A DNA stretch of 64,000 nucleotides from Monodelphis domestica (Eukaryota > Chordata > Mammalia > Didelphimorphia > Didelphidae), in assembly GCF_027887165.1 (NCBI RefSeq), contig NC_077228.1, forward strand, positions 106,714,043 to 106,778,042, given 5' to 3'. The translations under genes and the position numbers were made by a program. The notes beneath the pieces are model-generated. The model had not been told where the DNA came from. It made no database searches and worked only from the letters and a program-made list of their open reading frames with translations. Numbering within the stretch: the stretch's first letter is position 1; each line of letters starts with the position of its first letter. Positions 63,101-63,927 of this stretch are shown in pieces.

Positions 63101-63599
63101 GGGGACAGAATAGGACATCTATATTAACCCTGCAAGCATGTTGCTCTCATCTATTTTTCCTGGGGCTAAGTAAGAATAATAATCATAGCAATTCCAATAA
63201 TAAGGGGATGTTAATAAGGAAAAATCACTTGGGGGGAGGGGTTTCAGTGGGTGTTTCCATCCTTCCTGGGGGCTGATTTGCAGTCCCTGGTTTCCCATGT
63301 GACCGTGTCAAACAGTGTGGTCTTTGATGGCTCCCAGCAGAACCATGTGACATTTATATCTAGTATTCCATTAGGTCCTTATTGTATATTTGTTTTCAGT
63401 TTTTGCTCAATGGTGTTTTGTGATTTTCATTTTGTTTCTCCCTTTGAGTATCCCAATGCCTCTACCAGCCTTATCTCACTTCCCTATTTTCTTCTCCTTT
63501 CTTCCTTCCTTCCTGGTATAGATTAAAGTAGTCAGAGCATTCGGTAGCTCCCTCTATGAAGGCCTTCAGAAACCTCAATCTCGGAAGCTCTATCCATAA
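23955..63599 (+). CDS. ATP2B4: Plasma-membrane calcium-transporting ATPase 4 (PMCA4), whole gene span
   Basis: P2B-type ATPase that exports cytosolic Ca2+ across the plasma membrane using ATP and is activated by calmodulin through its C-terminal tail. Eighteen exons joined by GT-AG introns give 1072 residues up to RIQTQ, followed by alternative 'a' or 'b' ends. All pump motifs are visible: TGES 233-236, PEGLP 390-394, DKTGT with catalytic Asp 433, TGDN, GDGTND 751-756, and TM6 Asn 846/Asp 850. Paralog choice rests on PMCA4-like stretches: HYGGV-NLC near the N-terminus, LSFYRP after TM1, [15 protein letters not shown], and THP-F-EE--RTPLLD in the tail. Up to RIQTQ the protein is about 30 residues shorter than human PMCA4 as I recall it, mostly from a shorter N-terminus and site-A loop. 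The given end is the stop reached when the 'b' exon is read as sequenced. Ten membrane segments can be placed. Another ATP2B paralog is possible but less likely. Confidence 0.92.
24190..24455 (+). repeat. Two MIR tail fragments
   Basis: GCCCAGGGCCTGGCACAGAG with CTATGTAAATGA, then AGCAGCTCTTAATAAACGCTC, directly after the first coding exon. Confidence 0.65.
25511..25716 (+). mobile_element. Marsupial CORE-SINE, full length
   Basis: GGGGTGCAGCTAGGTAGCTC, CTTAACCCCCATTGCCTAGC and CAGTATTGGTTCTAAGACTG with A-rich end, in intron 1. Confidence 0.93.
26175..26430 (+). repeat. Old interspersed repeat, same family as 2405
   Basis: GGTCTTCTTAGAGGAGATGGC and AACTAACCTTTGAAGGATGA are the inner block of the family. 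The reversed MIR-like piece TCCGTTTTACAGATGAAGAA precedes it at about 25900-26060. Confidence 0.5.
27761..27958 (+). CDS. ATP2B4: ATP2B4 exon 2: N-terminal domain end and TM1
   Basis: Residues 58-123. It begins [18 protein letters not shown], continues through [19 protein letters not shown] and enters TM1, ending in LSFYRPPG. The acceptor follows a run of CTTCC repeats, and the donor is T|GTGAGT. At 27895-27897 an Ile codon (ATC) stands where mammalian PMCAs, as I recall them, have Glu in the TM1 motif TLIILE. The neighbouring residues are conserved, so this looks like a substitution rather than misalignment. Confidence 0.93.
28615..28872 (+). CDS. ATP2B4: ATP2B4 exon 3: first extracellular loop, TM2 and start of actuator domain
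   Basis: Residues 124-209. A short acidic extracellular loop ([18 protein letters not shown]) is followed by TM2 and by the very conserved cytosolic stretch [17 protein letters not shown]. The actuator domain then begins with [16 protein letters not shown] and [10 protein letters not shown]. Splice phases match exons 2 and 4. The loop differs strongly from human PMCA4, while the membrane and cytosolic parts are almost unchanged. Confidence 0.93.
29325..29445 (-). mobile_element. LINE (L1-type) 3' end fragment
   Basis: TTTAGAATATTTTTCCATGA and GGAGCTGACAAGCAGTTCAA, in intron 3. Confidence 0.8.
29876..30001 (+). CDS. ATP2B4: ATP2B4 exon 4: actuator domain with TGES
   Basis: Residues 210-251, [17 protein letters not shown] then [19 protein letters not shown] (233-236) is the loop that drives dephosphorylation of the aspartyl phosphate in P-type ATPases. 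The acceptor follows a long CT-rich tract (CCTTTTTTCCCCAG). The exon is 126 bases, phase 1 on both sides. Confidence 0.95.
30115..30395 (-). mobile_element. MIR/CORE-SINE, minus strand
   Basis: AGCACTTTACAATTATTATCT, AAACTGAGGCAGGCAGAAGT, TAGGATCACACAGCTAGTAA and GGGTCTTCCTAATTTCAGGC, in intron 4. Confidence 0.87.
30880..31008 (+). CDS. ATP2B4: ATP2B4 exon 5: actuator domain end, before splice site A
   Basis: Residues 252-294, starting [20 protein letters not shown] and ending in the charged run [12 protein letters not shown]. This is the point where PMCA genes insert alternative site-A exons into the cytosolic loop. The exon is 129 bases with phase 1 ends, so it joins exon 6 in frame without any intervening exon. 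Confidence 0.94.
31460..31640 (-). mobile_element. Marsupial CORE-SINE, minus strand
   Basis: AAACCCTTATCTACTGTCTT, CCAGATTTGAACCCAGGATC and CACTGAGCCACCTGGCTGTC, in intron 5. Confidence 0.9.
33637..33692. repeat. (CA)n microsatellite
   Basis: About 28 CA units without interruption, in intron 5. Confidence 0.98.
34023..34142 (+). CDS. ATP2B4: ATP2B4 exon 6: charged loop before TM3
   Basis: Residues 295-334. An acidic then lysine-rich stretch ([18 protein letters not shown]) leads into the conserved [20 protein letters not shown]. The loop joined from exons 5 and 6 is about 25 residues shorter than in human PMCA4. It lacks the GVALEIQPL-type segment that belongs to the phospholipid-sensitive, alternatively spliced site A. 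Confidence 0.93.
34897..35158 (+). mobile_element. MIR/CORE-SINE, near full length
   Basis: GCAGCTTAAATGGCACAGTAG head, AAAGTCAGGAACATGAGTTC, AATAATAATAGCACCTACCT and GTGTCTGGCACATATAATAG tail, in intron 6. Confidence 0.88.
35240..35790 (+). mobile_element. LINE (L1-type) 3' end, longer copy
   Basis: GGAAAGACCTACACAAACTG, AGAGAACATTGTACACAGAA and TTTTACATGATTGTACACGTA trace the ORF2-3' UTR region. The tail is GAAATTGTTTTTATATATTA. Confidence 0.82.
35967..36197 (-). mobile_element. MIR/CORE-SINE, minus strand
   Basis: TTTACAAGGTGCTTTGCAAGG, GACTTGCCCAAGGTCACACA and AACTGAGGTCTTCCTGACTC. An old LINE fragment follows to 36540. Confidence 0.88.
36540..36742 (-). mobile_element. Marsupial CORE-SINE, full length, minus strand
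   Basis: AAAAACTTACCTTCCGTCTT, CAGGGTCACACAGCTGGAAA, CTCAATCCACTGGGCCACCC. Confidence 0.93.
38404..38618 (+). CDS. ATP2B4: ATP2B4 exon 7: TM3, extracellular loop and TM4 (PEGLP)
   Basis: Residues 335-406. TM3 is followed by the loop [20 protein letters not shown] and TM4 containing [16 protein letters not shown] (390-394) supplies part of the Ca2+ site. The loop resembles PMCA1/3 more than human PMCA4 (IDNFVINRRPWLPECTP). The 215-base exon ends at a codon boundary after SLAYSVK. Confidence 0.95.
38974..39216 (+). CDS. ATP2B4: ATP2B4 exon 8: phosphorylation site
   Basis: Residues 407-487, beginning [19 protein letters not shown]. The P-type signature [15 protein letters not shown] is intact. 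The phosphorylated aspartate is residue 433, codon 39052-39054. The rest enters the nucleotide-binding domain ([17 protein letters not shown]). The exon is 243 bases, phase 0 at both ends, and its acceptor follows CTTCTTCTGGCAG. Confidence 0.97.
39436..39497. repeat. Perfect 27-bp inverted repeat with 8-base loop
   Basis: Arm 39436-39462 (AATGAGATTAGG...TGCATG) is the exact reverse complement of 39471-39497 (CATGCA...CTAATCTCATT). The loop is AGAGGAGC. It lies in the intron between exons 8 and 9. Confidence 0.97.
39497..39522. repeat. 13-bp perfect tandem duplication
   Basis: TTAGGTACCCACT occurs twice head to tail, directly after the inverted repeat. Confidence 0.95.
39829..40070 (+). CDS. 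ATP2B4: ATP2B4 exon 9: nucleotide-binding domain
   Basis: Residues 488-567. It begins [20 protein letters not shown] and includes [10 protein letters not shown] and the ATP-site lysine motif SKGASE. Phases fit exons 8 and 10 (the Lys codon 568 is split AA|G). The middle part ([15 protein letters not shown]) is the most divergent from human. Confidence 0.96.
40403..40446. repeat. A-run followed by (AT)n microsatellite
   Basis: Thirteen A then about 15 AT units, in intron 9. Confidence 0.97.
40925..41070 (-). mobile_element. LINE (L1-type) 3' end fragment
   Basis: TTTAGAATATTTCTATGGTT, ACAAGATTCATGTTCTTTCC and AAGTCCACTGGGTTTTACAT, in intron 9. Confidence 0.8.
41355..41533 (+). mobile_element. 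Hybrid SINE: MIR core joined to CORE-SINE tail
   Basis: Starts as MIR (ACTGGGCAAGTCACTTTTCT, CATCTGTAAAATGGAGTGTT) and switches at about 41455 to the marsupial SINE tail (AGCCTAGCCCTTACCACTCT; TATGGATTCTAAGACGGAAG). Confidence 0.8.
41967..42168 (+). mobile_element. Marsupial CORE-SINE, full length
   Basis: GGAGCAGCTAGGTGGTTCAG, GGGTTCAAATCTGGCCTTAG, CAGTATTGATTCTAAGGCAG with A-rich end. Confidence 0.93.
42604..42832 (+). CDS. ATP2B4: ATP2B4 exon 10: end of nucleotide-binding domain and hinge
   Basis: Residues 568-644. It carries [28 protein letters not shown] and the hinge [10 protein letters not shown], all standard PMCA landmarks. The donor is GAG|GTAAGG. The codons for [13 protein letters not shown] hinge residues are fully conserved. 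Confidence 0.95.
43205..43430 (+). mobile_element. MIR/CORE-SINE
   Basis: ATTCAAATCCAGCCTCAGAA, CCTCAGTTTTCTCATCTGTA, AATAATAGCACTCAACCTCC and AAAGTGCTTTGAAAACCATA, in intron 10. Confidence 0.87.
43766..43945 (+). CDS. ATP2B4: ATP2B4 exon 11: phosphorylation domain, TGDN motif
   Basis: Residues 645-704, [18 protein letters not shown] then [16 protein letters not shown] and [21 protein letters not shown] lies beside the phosphorylated aspartate in the fold. The exon is exactly 60 codons in phase 0 with AG|GTG borders. Confidence 0.96.
44268..44355 (+). CDS. ATP2B4: ATP2B4 exon 12: short phosphorylation-domain exon
   Basis: Residues 705-733 ([20 protein letters not shown] then PADKYILVK). It corresponds to human [28 protein letters not shown]. 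The 88-base exon ends one base into a Gly codon, matching the next exon. Confidence 0.94.
44796..44902 (+). CDS. ATP2B4: ATP2B4 exon 13: GDGTND hinge motif
   Basis: Residues 734-769. It contains [20 protein letters not shown] followed by DVGFAM. GDGTND (751-756) binds Mg2+ and closes the phosphorylation site. The donor is ATG|GTAACC, phase 0. Confidence 0.96.
45060..45075. repeat. Run of 16 G
   Basis: Uninterrupted poly-G early in intron 13, preceded by GTGGGTGGA. Confidence 0.95.
45240..45640 (+). repeat. Old interspersed repeat, same family as 2405
   Basis: Weakly matching blocks: CTTGCATTCTAATTGGGAAA, GGAATTAAGCCTCCAAAGAG and TTAGGCGTAAGAATTTGAGTT, in intron 13. Confidence 0.4.
46560..46745 (-). 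repeat. MIR fragment, minus strand
   Basis: CCTCATTTTACAAATGAGGA, CTGAAACCCAGAGAGATGAT and TGGGATTTGAACCTAGGTCC. A second piece (TTACATATGAGGAAAGTAGG) follows at 46800-46890. Confidence 0.75.
46974..47165 (+). CDS. ATP2B4: ATP2B4 exon 14: end of phosphorylation domain and TM5
   Basis: Residues 770-833. [20 protein letters not shown] leads to [20 protein letters not shown] and TM5 ([19 protein letters not shown]). It is nearly identical to other vertebrate PMCAs, showing strong constraint. It has 64 codons in phase 0. Confidence 0.97.
47517..47704 (-). mobile_element. Marsupial CORE-SINE, full length, minus strand
   Basis: TTTAAACCCATGTCTTCTGTC, GACTTGCCCAGGATCACACA, CACTGGACCACCTAGCTGCC, ending 101 bases before exon 15. 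A MIR piece precedes it at 47425-47500. Confidence 0.92.
47806..48019 (+). CDS. ATP2B4: ATP2B4 exon 15: TM6 Ca2+ site and TM7
   Basis: Residues 834-904. [20 protein letters not shown] holds the TM6 calcium ligands Asn 846 and Asp 850. [19 protein letters not shown] then [10 protein letters not shown] and TM7 follow. The [13 protein letters not shown] stretch favours PMCA4 (or PMCA1) over PMCA2/3. The donor is G|GTGAGC. Confidence 0.97.
48173..48384 (+). CDS. ATP2B4: ATP2B4 exon 16: TM7-TM9
   Basis: Residues 905-975. An extracellular loop ([20 protein letters not shown]) precedes TM8 ([20 protein letters not shown]), the cytosolic turn [13 protein letters not shown] and TM9. The preceding intron is only 153 bases, the shortest in the gene. 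Confidence 0.96.
49122..49166. repeat. (CT)n microsatellite
   Basis: About 22 CT units in intron 16. MIR-like reversed pieces follow at 49330-49560. Confidence 0.97.
49915..50022 (+). CDS. ATP2B4: ATP2B4 exon 17: TM9 end and TM10
   Basis: Residues 976-1011. [20 protein letters not shown] then [16 protein letters not shown], giving the last extracellular loop and TM10. It has 36 codons in phase 0. The acceptor follows TTTTTCCTTCACAG. Confidence 0.95.
50105..50225 (+). repeat. Old interspersed repeat, same family as 2405 (5' part)
   Basis: TTATTAAGCGCTTTCTCTGTA, GTGCTGGGGATGAAAAGAAA and CTGCCCTCCAGGAGCTCACA. Confidence 0.55.
50322..50334. repeat. Target-site duplication, left copy
   Basis: ACAACTATTTTTT, continuing into three more T, lies exactly at the 3' end of the antisense YEATS4 retrocopy. 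Confidence 0.85.
50335..50984 (-). pseudogene. YEATS4: Processed, 3'-truncated retrocopy of YEATS4 (GAS41)
   Basis: On the minus strand, after about 280 bases of GC-rich 5' [23 protein letters not shown] and [19 protein letters not shown] match the YEATS4 N-terminus without introns. The upstream Met of human YEATS4 is Ile here; the next ATG is at 50701. A one-base shift after the KKREDDG stretch produces a stop at 50573. Farther on, [31 protein letters not shown] and [15 protein letters not shown] continue in other frames. The match ends at about residue 125 of 227, inside the YEATS domain, then a short A-run. Flanking copies of ACAACTATTTTTT (322-334 and 985-997 past 50000) are the target-site duplication. 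It is not expected to make YEATS4 protein. Confidence 0.93.
50640..50984 (-). promoter_or_regulatory. CpG-rich block carried by the YEATS4 retrocopy
   Basis: This stretch has many CG dinucleotides and GC-rich runs, unlike the AT-leaning DNA around it. It corresponds to the 5' UTR and first codons of YEATS4 copied into the intron. Any promoter activity is inference only. Confidence 0.45.
50985..50997. repeat. Target-site duplication, right copy
   Basis: A second perfect ACAACTATTTTTT directly follows the 5' end of the YEATS4 retrocopy, as made by L1 endonuclease insertion. Confidence 0.85.
51036..51318. repeat. Purine-rich GA/GGGA tract
   Basis: Nearly 280 bases of GA, GGGA and GGAGA words on the + strand, only about 40 bases beyond the retrocopy's right target-site copy. 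Confidence 0.95.
51345..51650 (+). mobile_element. LINE (L1-type) 3' end
   Basis: CATTCCACTTTATTTCCTTC, TGTATCAGACTATTTACTGCC, AATTGTCAAAAAATGTTTCA and a closing AACATGTAATGGGG. Confidence 0.7.
51660..53100. other. Rest of intron 17, nothing firm
   Basis: A SINE-like scrap (AAGAATGCTAAATCTGGAGTC) at 51660-51740 and CT-rich DNA at 52190-52400. No exon between exons 17 and 18 is needed by splice phase. Confidence 0.4.
53143..53325 (+). CDS. ATP2B4: ATP2B4 exon 18: C-terminal tail, calmodulin-binding start
   Basis: Residues 1012-1072. [19 protein letters not shown] is followed by a lineage-variable stretch, then [21 protein letters not shown]. This is the first half of the autoinhibitory calmodulin-binding helix, with anchor Trp 1062. 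It ends in phase 0 at the PMCA splice site C, where 'a' and 'b' tails diverge. Confidence 0.93.
54265..54419. repeat. 31-bp minisatellite, five copies
   Basis: Five consecutive units of 31, 31, 31, 30 and 32 bases share the frame AATTAAAATRGT....ATAAACTGTAA. Units differ from one another at several positions, so the array is not recent. Confidence 0.9.
54430..55450. repeat. Unclassified repeat-like stretch
   Basis: CT- and CCAAGG-rich DNA with internally repeated words such as CTCCAAGGCCTCCAAGCC and TCTTATATAGGG lies between the 31-bp array and the 60-bp repeat. It has no coding potential I recognise. A decayed LTR or composite repeat is possible but not shown. Confidence 0.3.
55184..55320. 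repeat. About 60-bp tandem repeat, two copies plus a partial third
   Basis: Units start AGCAAG at 55184, 55241 and 55304. They share TTTTCTCCCTTAAAGCA, TTCTTAAGTACG and GGTGGAGTAGAGGTCCTCCC. Copy 2 has small insertions, including GTAC. Confidence 0.9.
56035..56262 (-). mobile_element. MIR-related SINE, minus strand
   Basis: TCATGCCTAATTCTTTGTAA, TTTCCTTCTCCAGCTCATTT, ACTTACCCAGGGTCACAGAG and GATGAGTCTTCCTGACGCCA. Confidence 0.9.
56994..57047. repeat. Compound (AT)n(AC)n microsatellite
   Basis: About 20 AT units followed by six CA units, in the intron before the 'a' exon. Confidence 0.97.
58273..58411 (+). CDS. ATP2B4: ATP2B4 alternative 'a'-type exon (splice site C)
   Basis: After a CT-rich tract and TTTGCAG the reading frame from exon 18 continues [20 protein letters not shown] and runs 46 codons plus one base to ..FSESSSG and a GT at 58412 (T|GTGAGT). 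Its first residues match the IEVV/IDVI start of known 'a' inserts. The length, 139 bases, is one more than a multiple of three, as in human 'a' exons (154 or 178). Joined to 63522 it reads one Tyr codon then TAA, giving a 1119-residue 'a' form. The body of the insert shows little similarity to the human PMCA4 insert, so transcript support is needed. Confidence 0.7.
58636..58835 (+). mobile_element. Marsupial CORE-SINE
   Basis: GGGGAAGCTAAGTAGGTGGC head, TGGGCAAGACACCCATTGCC core with a short deletion, and TAGTATTGATTCTAAGACAA tail. It begins 225 bases after the 'a' exon. Confidence 0.9.
58850..63520. other. Last intron, between 'a' and 'b' exons
   Basis: Few recognisable repeats. A strongly pyrimidine-rich tract (CTTCTTCCTC words) runs at about 61815-62030. 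An AAT run lies at 58859-58876. No third splice-site-C exon could be supported. Confidence 0.5.

Positions 63600-63927: not shown

What the first reader, a model, noticed from the sequence alone, without database searches (positions are those of the whole stretch)
63522..63927. PMCA4b tail is out of frame and lacks its stop, yet still conserved
Exon 18 flows into [20 protein letters not shown] and stops at TAA 63597. The next roughly 85 residues of a normal PMCA4b tail are readable only in a frame one base off, and they keep THPKFTLEE, RTPLLDD, NNNALDS and ETSV. After ETSV the codon is CAA, so the PDZ ligand is not terminal even in that frame. A single extra C near 63585-63590 and one T-to-C change at the stop would account for this. 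Either the assembly is wrong here, or this lineage has lost the PDZ-binding 'b' tail recently enough that the codons are still recognisable. Loss would remove anchoring to PDZ partners while keeping most of the calmodulin helix.
Basis: partly seen in the sequence, partly recalled or inferred. Interest (0 to 1): 0.7.

Follow-up and report, generated by a model that had tools for sequence, protein, structure and literature searches.

The report
Frameshifted calcium-pump tail in a marsupial
In this genome the gene for the calcium pump PMCA4 looks intact except that its last exon is knocked out of frame, so the pump should lack the tail that anchors it to partner proteins; whether this is a real recent loss or one assembly error needs sequencing reads to settle.

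Summary
The window holds ATP2B4 (PMCA4): my model has 19 coding exons, 23955-63599, with no stop before the last exon. In the last exon the frame runs [25 protein letters not shown] to TAA at 63597-63599. One base further on, the rest of a PMCA 'b' tail is readable down to ETSV, followed by CAA and 26 more codons. The exon has one full match in a 3.59 Gb, 13-contig assembly. New here: the alternative 'a' exon at splice site C is found in ATP2B2 and ATP2B3 but was not found in the gap-free ATP2B4 intron. So I can read no conventional C-terminal tail for this gene. Best reading: a real, fairly recent loss of the PMCA4b tail, leaving a calmodulin-regulated pump without the di-leucine signal and PDZ ligand. 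I saw no reads, RNA, second individual or other marsupial, so an indel error remains a serious rival.

The parts
23955..53325 (+). ATP2B4 coding exons 1-18 (ATG at 23955), open when spliced, up to ...[12 protein letters not shown]
   Evidence: tblastn with recalled human PMCA4b; hand-placed splice sites and spliced translation
53143..53325 (+). coding exon 18, carries the first part of the calmodulin-binding region (PF12424 positions 1-15)
53326..63521 (+). intron where the alternative site-C 'a' exon would be expected; none recognised, no N in it
63522..63599 (+). coding exon 19 up to the premature stop TAA 63597-63599: [25 protein letters not shown]
63585..63585 (+). most likely extra base (an A of GGAAGC; exact base ambiguous within about 63582-63588)
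   Evidence: paralog tails switch frame between exon nt 63 and 65; MAFFT puts the gap at 63582
63586..63843 (+). out-of-frame remainder of the PMCA 'b' tail, SSIHNF...LETSV (86 codons, no stop)
63844..63927 (+). CAA in place of a stop after ETSV, then 26 further codons and TAA: ETSV is not terminal even in its own frame
   Evidence: paralogs stop directly after ETSL

Best explanation
This is an otherwise intact ATP2B4 (PMCA4) gene whose 'b' C-terminal tail has been lost by a one-base insertion early in the last exon, with the original stop codon changed as well. Shown: the reading frames, the premature stop, a single full match of the exon in the assembly, two intact paralogous tails, and no recognisable 'a' exon. 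Inferred: the change is real DNA and not an error. Because the new stop lies in the last exon, the mRNA should escape nonsense-mediated decay and make a pump of about 1097 residues. That pump would keep the catalytic parts and the calmodulin-binding/autoinhibitory helix, but lack about 80 residues with the RTPLLDD di-leucine stretch and the terminal ETSV PDZ ligand. It should still be calmodulin-regulated, but not held by Dlg/NHERF/PDZD11-type PDZ partners, and its internalisation and sorting may differ.
For: Eighteen upstream coding exons are open when spliced at AG/GT sites; the spliced model is 817/1107 (74%) identical to recalled human PMCA4. The exon has one 100% match in the assembly and the two further DNA matches are paralogs. 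Both fetched paralogous 'b' tails are intact with immediate stops. The indel is not in a long homopolymer (GGAAGC). A second change removed the stop after ETSV. Recalled 'a' peptides find the exon in ATP2B2 (best E 2e-29) and ATP2B3 (best E 4e-14) introns; the best match in the ATP2B4 intron is E 0.25, and a profile gives nothing there better than E 1.6. PF12424 matches positions 1-37 of 47 across the two ATP2B4 exons, while each paralog's last exon matches 16-47. Roles of the lost parts: ETSV binds Dlg1 and a di-leucine motif is an endocytic signal (PMC11904214, passages); b forms carry the PDZ motif and a forms do not (PMC8835232, passages).
Against: The out-of-frame part still looks well kept (37 of 86 columns, 43%, identical to recalled human PMCA4b; RTPLLDD, NNNALDS and ETSV present), which is also what a simple one-base error would show. 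One assembly, no reads and no RNA. The rough neutral estimate gives a 53% chance of no further stop or frameshift after 10 Myr and 28% after 20 Myr, but only a 5-9% chance that the stop codon is lost in that time (rates recalled), so the pair of changes is awkward under recent drift. The missing 'a' exon may be old and unrelated, or merely too divergent for recalled queries: the PMCA4a query found the ATP2B3 exon only at E 0.001. On function: PMC9307954 (passages) reports earlier work in which neither PDZ-domain deletion nor di-leucine mutation sent PMCA4b to the apical side in MDCK cells, and that PMCA4a is as effective as PMCA4b, so the effect of the loss may be small.
Confidence: 0.62

Rival explanations
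1. Sequencing or assembly error: one base too many at about 63585; the real gene makes a full b tail, possibly with a 27-residue extension after ETSV if the CAA is real.
For: Tail still recognisable and open over 86 codons in its own frame. A doubled A is a common kind of indel error (general knowledge).
Against: No other lesion seen in the 18 upstream coding exons of the model. Large 13-contig assembly and no N in the window. The CAA at the stop needs a second error or a real change. Does not explain the 'a' exon not being found.
Confidence: 0.27
2. A segregating or private allele: the sequenced individual carries the frameshift, and the species as a whole keeps the tail.
For: Explains why the tail is still conserved out of frame.
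Against: Leaves the changed stop codon unexplained unless that is fixed.
Confidence: 0.08
3. The frame is regained in the cell: either by a splice acceptor ten bases downstream (AG at 63530-63531, which joins exon 18 to the tail frame) or by +1 ribosomal frameshifting at the UAA.
For: The frame from 63532 is open to 63927. The UAA at 63597 can formally be passed by a +1 shift into AAC.
Against: The downstream acceptor would destroy the second half of the calmodulin helix. The 101 bases after the stop fold weakly (z-score +1.47; 189 of 200 shuffles at least as stable). Either way ETSV would be followed by 27 residues. The antizyme-type shift motif (recalled) is not there.
Confidence: 0.03

Closest known systems
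PMCA4b (ATP2B4 splice form b) of other mammals
   Same: Same gene body and phase-0 last exon. Calmodulin helix and the pieces THPxF, RTPLLD, NNNA and ETSV recognisable against recalled human PMCA4b.
   Different: Tail after QSR is out of frame, stop at 63597, no stop after ETSV.
PMCA 'a' splice forms
   Same: Also lack the PDZ ligand and have an altered or shorter end (PMC8835232 and PMC9307954, passages).
   Different: Here the loss comes from a frameshift inside the common last exon, not from an inserted exon. The calmodulin helix stays of the b kind, and no 'a' exon was recognised.
Laboratory truncation PMCA4b-ct120
   Same: Removes the tail from the C-terminus.
   Different: ct120 removes 120 residues and is constitutively active (PMC11787511, passages). 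Here only about 80 are lost and the calmodulin/autoinhibitory helix is kept, so the pump should stay regulated (inference).
ATP2B2 and ATP2B3 b tails of the same genome
   Same: Homologous last exon with the same start phase.
   Different: Open in one frame and ending directly in ETSL-stop.

Membership tests
PMCA4 / ATP2B4 | P-type Ca2+ ATPase body closest to PMCA4 across the gene | tested here: inconclusive
   Spliced model 817/1107 identical to recalled human PMCA4b, but not scored against the other three full-length PMCAs; ATP2B2- and ATP2B3-like exons lie on other contigs, ATP2B1 was not located
PMCA4 / ATP2B4 | splice sites and open exons | tested here: met
   19 coding exons; 18 of 18 internal donors GT and 18 of 18 internal acceptors AG. 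Borders were placed by hand at such sites near the homology edges, so the motif count is partly by construction; the fitting phases and open frame are not
PMCA 'b' splice form | calmodulin-binding region continued into the last exon (PF12424) | tested here: met
   PF12424 positions 1-15 in exon 18 and 16-37 in exon 19, above cut-off; positions 38-47 lost to the frameshift
PMCA 'b' splice form | terminal PDZ ligand (ETSV/ETSL) directly before the stop | tested here: not met
   Stop at 63597 before the tail; ETSV out of frame and followed by CAA; met in ATP2B2 and ATP2B3
PMCA 'a' splice form | site-C 'a' exon between coding exon 18 and the last exon | tested here: not met
   Not found in 53326-63521 by tblastn with three recalled 'a' peptides (best E 0.25) or by profile (best E 1.6); found in both paralogs by tblastn. 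The profile contained the two paralog exons, so its paralog hits are by construction. Recalled queries could miss a very divergent exon
Pseudogene (unitary) | several disabling lesions across the gene | tested here: not met
   No lesion in the first 18 coding exons of the model; both changes lie in the last exon
PMCA4b-type function | binding to PDZ partners; surface expression | not testable with these tools
   No protein or RNA data

The most novel reading that the evidence does not exclude
In this marsupial lineage ATP2B4 has lost both alternative C-terminal tails: the 'a' exon is gone and the 'b' tail is frameshifted. What was a splice-switched pair of pumps has become a single short, calmodulin-regulated PMCA4 without PDZ anchoring or di-leucine sorting.
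Probability: 0.5. Interest if true: 0.55.

Novelty: new variant of a known kind. Interest (0 to 1): 0.4.

Why it matters
The PDZ-binding 'b' tail and the a/b splice switch are described as shared features of the four mammalian PMCA genes (PMC8835232, passages). A mammal whose PMCA4 naturally lacks both would be a natural test of what PDZ anchoring of this pump is for (polarity, nitric-oxide signalling), and of whether other PMCAs take over. If it is an error, it matters only as a correction to the assembly and to the gene model.

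Tried and rejected
Duplicate or retrocopy: the exon DNA has one full-length match in the assembly and two partial matches, both in paralogs; that search scores only the best candidates, and the more sensitive protein search did not complete, so a diverged or retro-copied tail is not excluded. ATP2B1 was not located. Frame rescue by the site-C 'a' exon: no such exon found, and the two other frames at the start of the last exon reach a stop within a few codons. 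Programmed frameshifting: no supporting structure in the 101 bases after the stop. Relatives in IMG/VR and in the GTDB genomes: 29 and 134 stretches matched a pattern, none confirmed, as expected for an animal gene. Literature (listings only): ATP2B4 with marsupial, 3 papers; ATP2B4 with opossum, 8 papers; no title or abstract start there concerns this tail, and none of these papers was opened. Monodelphis with PMCA4, 0 papers; ATP2B4 with gene loss, mammal and frameshift, 0 papers. A human-like site-A stretch (NRNKAKxQDG...) was not found in 31009-34100 by tblastn (best E 0.46; one search likewise). One search was an uninformative scan; one search failed on a wrong coordinate; the search failed on a wrong option and was repeated; only the PMCA1a rows were in view, and the PMCA4a and PMCA2a queries were seen.

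Full report
What is there. The window carries ATP2B4 on the + strand. Using a human PMCA4b protein recalled from memory as the guide, I built a gene model of 19 coding exons from ATG 23955 to the last exon at 63522. Exon borders were placed by hand at AG/GT sites next to the homology edges. With 18 internal donors and 18 internal acceptors so placed, the phases fit and the spliced translation has one stop, at its end. It is 817/1107 identical to the recalled human protein. An exon that I failed to recognise would not have been checked for lesions.

The last exon. From the acceptor (63522) the frame reads [25 protein letters not shown] and stops at TAA 63597-63599. One base on, from 63586, the sequence reads [26 protein letters not shown]...ETSV without a stop, then CAA and 26 more codons to a stop at 63925-63927. 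Each half matches solved PMCA1 and PMCA2 in its own frame. Pfam's PMCA C-terminal family PF12424 covers exon 18 (positions 1-15) and the first part of exon 19 (positions 16-37), then breaks off; in the last exons of ATP2B2 and ATP2B3 it runs to position 47.

Which base. ATP2B2 and ATP2B3 tails from the same genome were aligned to the exon: both run in frame 1 over exon bases 1-63 and in frame 2 from base 65. The base left over is 63585, an A in GGAAGC, and the junction then reads SRSSIHNF, as in PMCA1.

Error or real. The window lies in a 3.586 Gb assembly of 13 contigs, and the exon has one full match there, plus two partial matches (81-82% identity) on C9 and C7. These are last exons of two other PMCA genes. 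C7 is called ATP2B2 because its tail closely follows the solved PMCA2 tail shown; C9 is called ATP2B3 from recalled sequence only. Both are intact in one frame and stop directly after ETSL, with TAA on C9 and TAG on C7. The fourth gene, ATP2B1, was not located. The ATP2B4 codon after ETSV is CAA, so an indel error alone does not give back a normal tail; a second change is needed there. Contig sizes (544.7, 293.8 and 89.4 Mb) fit chromosomes 2, 7 and X of the gray short-tailed opossum from memory; no tool named the species.

A second absence. Between coding exon 18 and the last exon, mammalian PMCA genes carry an optional 'a' exon (site C; PMC8835232, passages). Recalled human 'a' peptides find it in the matching introns of ATP2B2 (best E 2e-29) and ATP2B3 (best E 4e-14). 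In the 10.2 kb ATP2B4 intron, which has no N, the best match of three queries is E 0.25. A profile built from five 'a' exons gives nothing there better than E 1.6, though two of its members are the paralog exons themselves. This rests on recalled query sequences and would miss a very divergent exon; the PMCA4a query found the ATP2B3 exon only at E 0.001.

How it would work. The premature stop is in the last exon, so the message should be stable (general knowledge). The product keeps the pump body and the calmodulin helix and loses about 80 residues. Among these are the di-leucine stretch (RTPLLDD here) and ETSV. [quoted passage not shown] that RTPLLD is that motif is recalled. In kidney cells, PMCA4x/b without its PDZ motif was found ectopically at the apical membrane, and PDZD11 counteracted calcium extrusion by the b form but not the a form. 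The same paper also cites MDCK work in which neither change made the pump apical, and states that PMCA4a is as effective as PMCA4b (PMC9307954, passages including the abstract). Removing 120 residues makes PMCA4b constitutively active (PMC11787511, passages); here the helix stays, so I expect a regulated but unanchored pump. The size of the effect is open.

Age. With recalled neutral rates (2.2e-9 substitutions per site per year, indels 12% of that, 80% of them frame-breaking), the 258 tail bases would stay free of further stops or frameshifts with probability 0.53 after 10 Myr, 0.28 after 20 and 0.08 after 40, while the stop codon itself would be lost with probability 0.05, 0.09 and 0.18. This fits loss within the last few tens of millions of years and is only a rough bound. 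It also shows that having the stop changed by drift is not especially likely, so the order of events (stop change first, frameshift later, or the reverse) is open.

Verdict. The feature is in the sequence as reported in kind. I favour real loss over error (0.62 against 0.27), because no other lesion was seen in the gene model, two paralogous tails are clean, the stop is changed too, and the 'a' exon was not found. No relative, read or transcript was available, and those would decide.

Noticed in passing
53326-63521: No recognisable site-C 'a' exon in ATP2B4, although ATP2B2 and ATP2B3 of the same genome have one.
   Followed up: yes
31009-34022: The human stretch NRNKAKxQDG...QPLNSQ near splice site A was not found in this intron, so the model protein is shorter there than the recalled human one.
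   Followed up: partly
63530-63531: An AG ten bases inside the last exon would join exon 18 to the tail frame, which is then open to 63927, at the cost of the calmodulin helix.
   Followed up: partly
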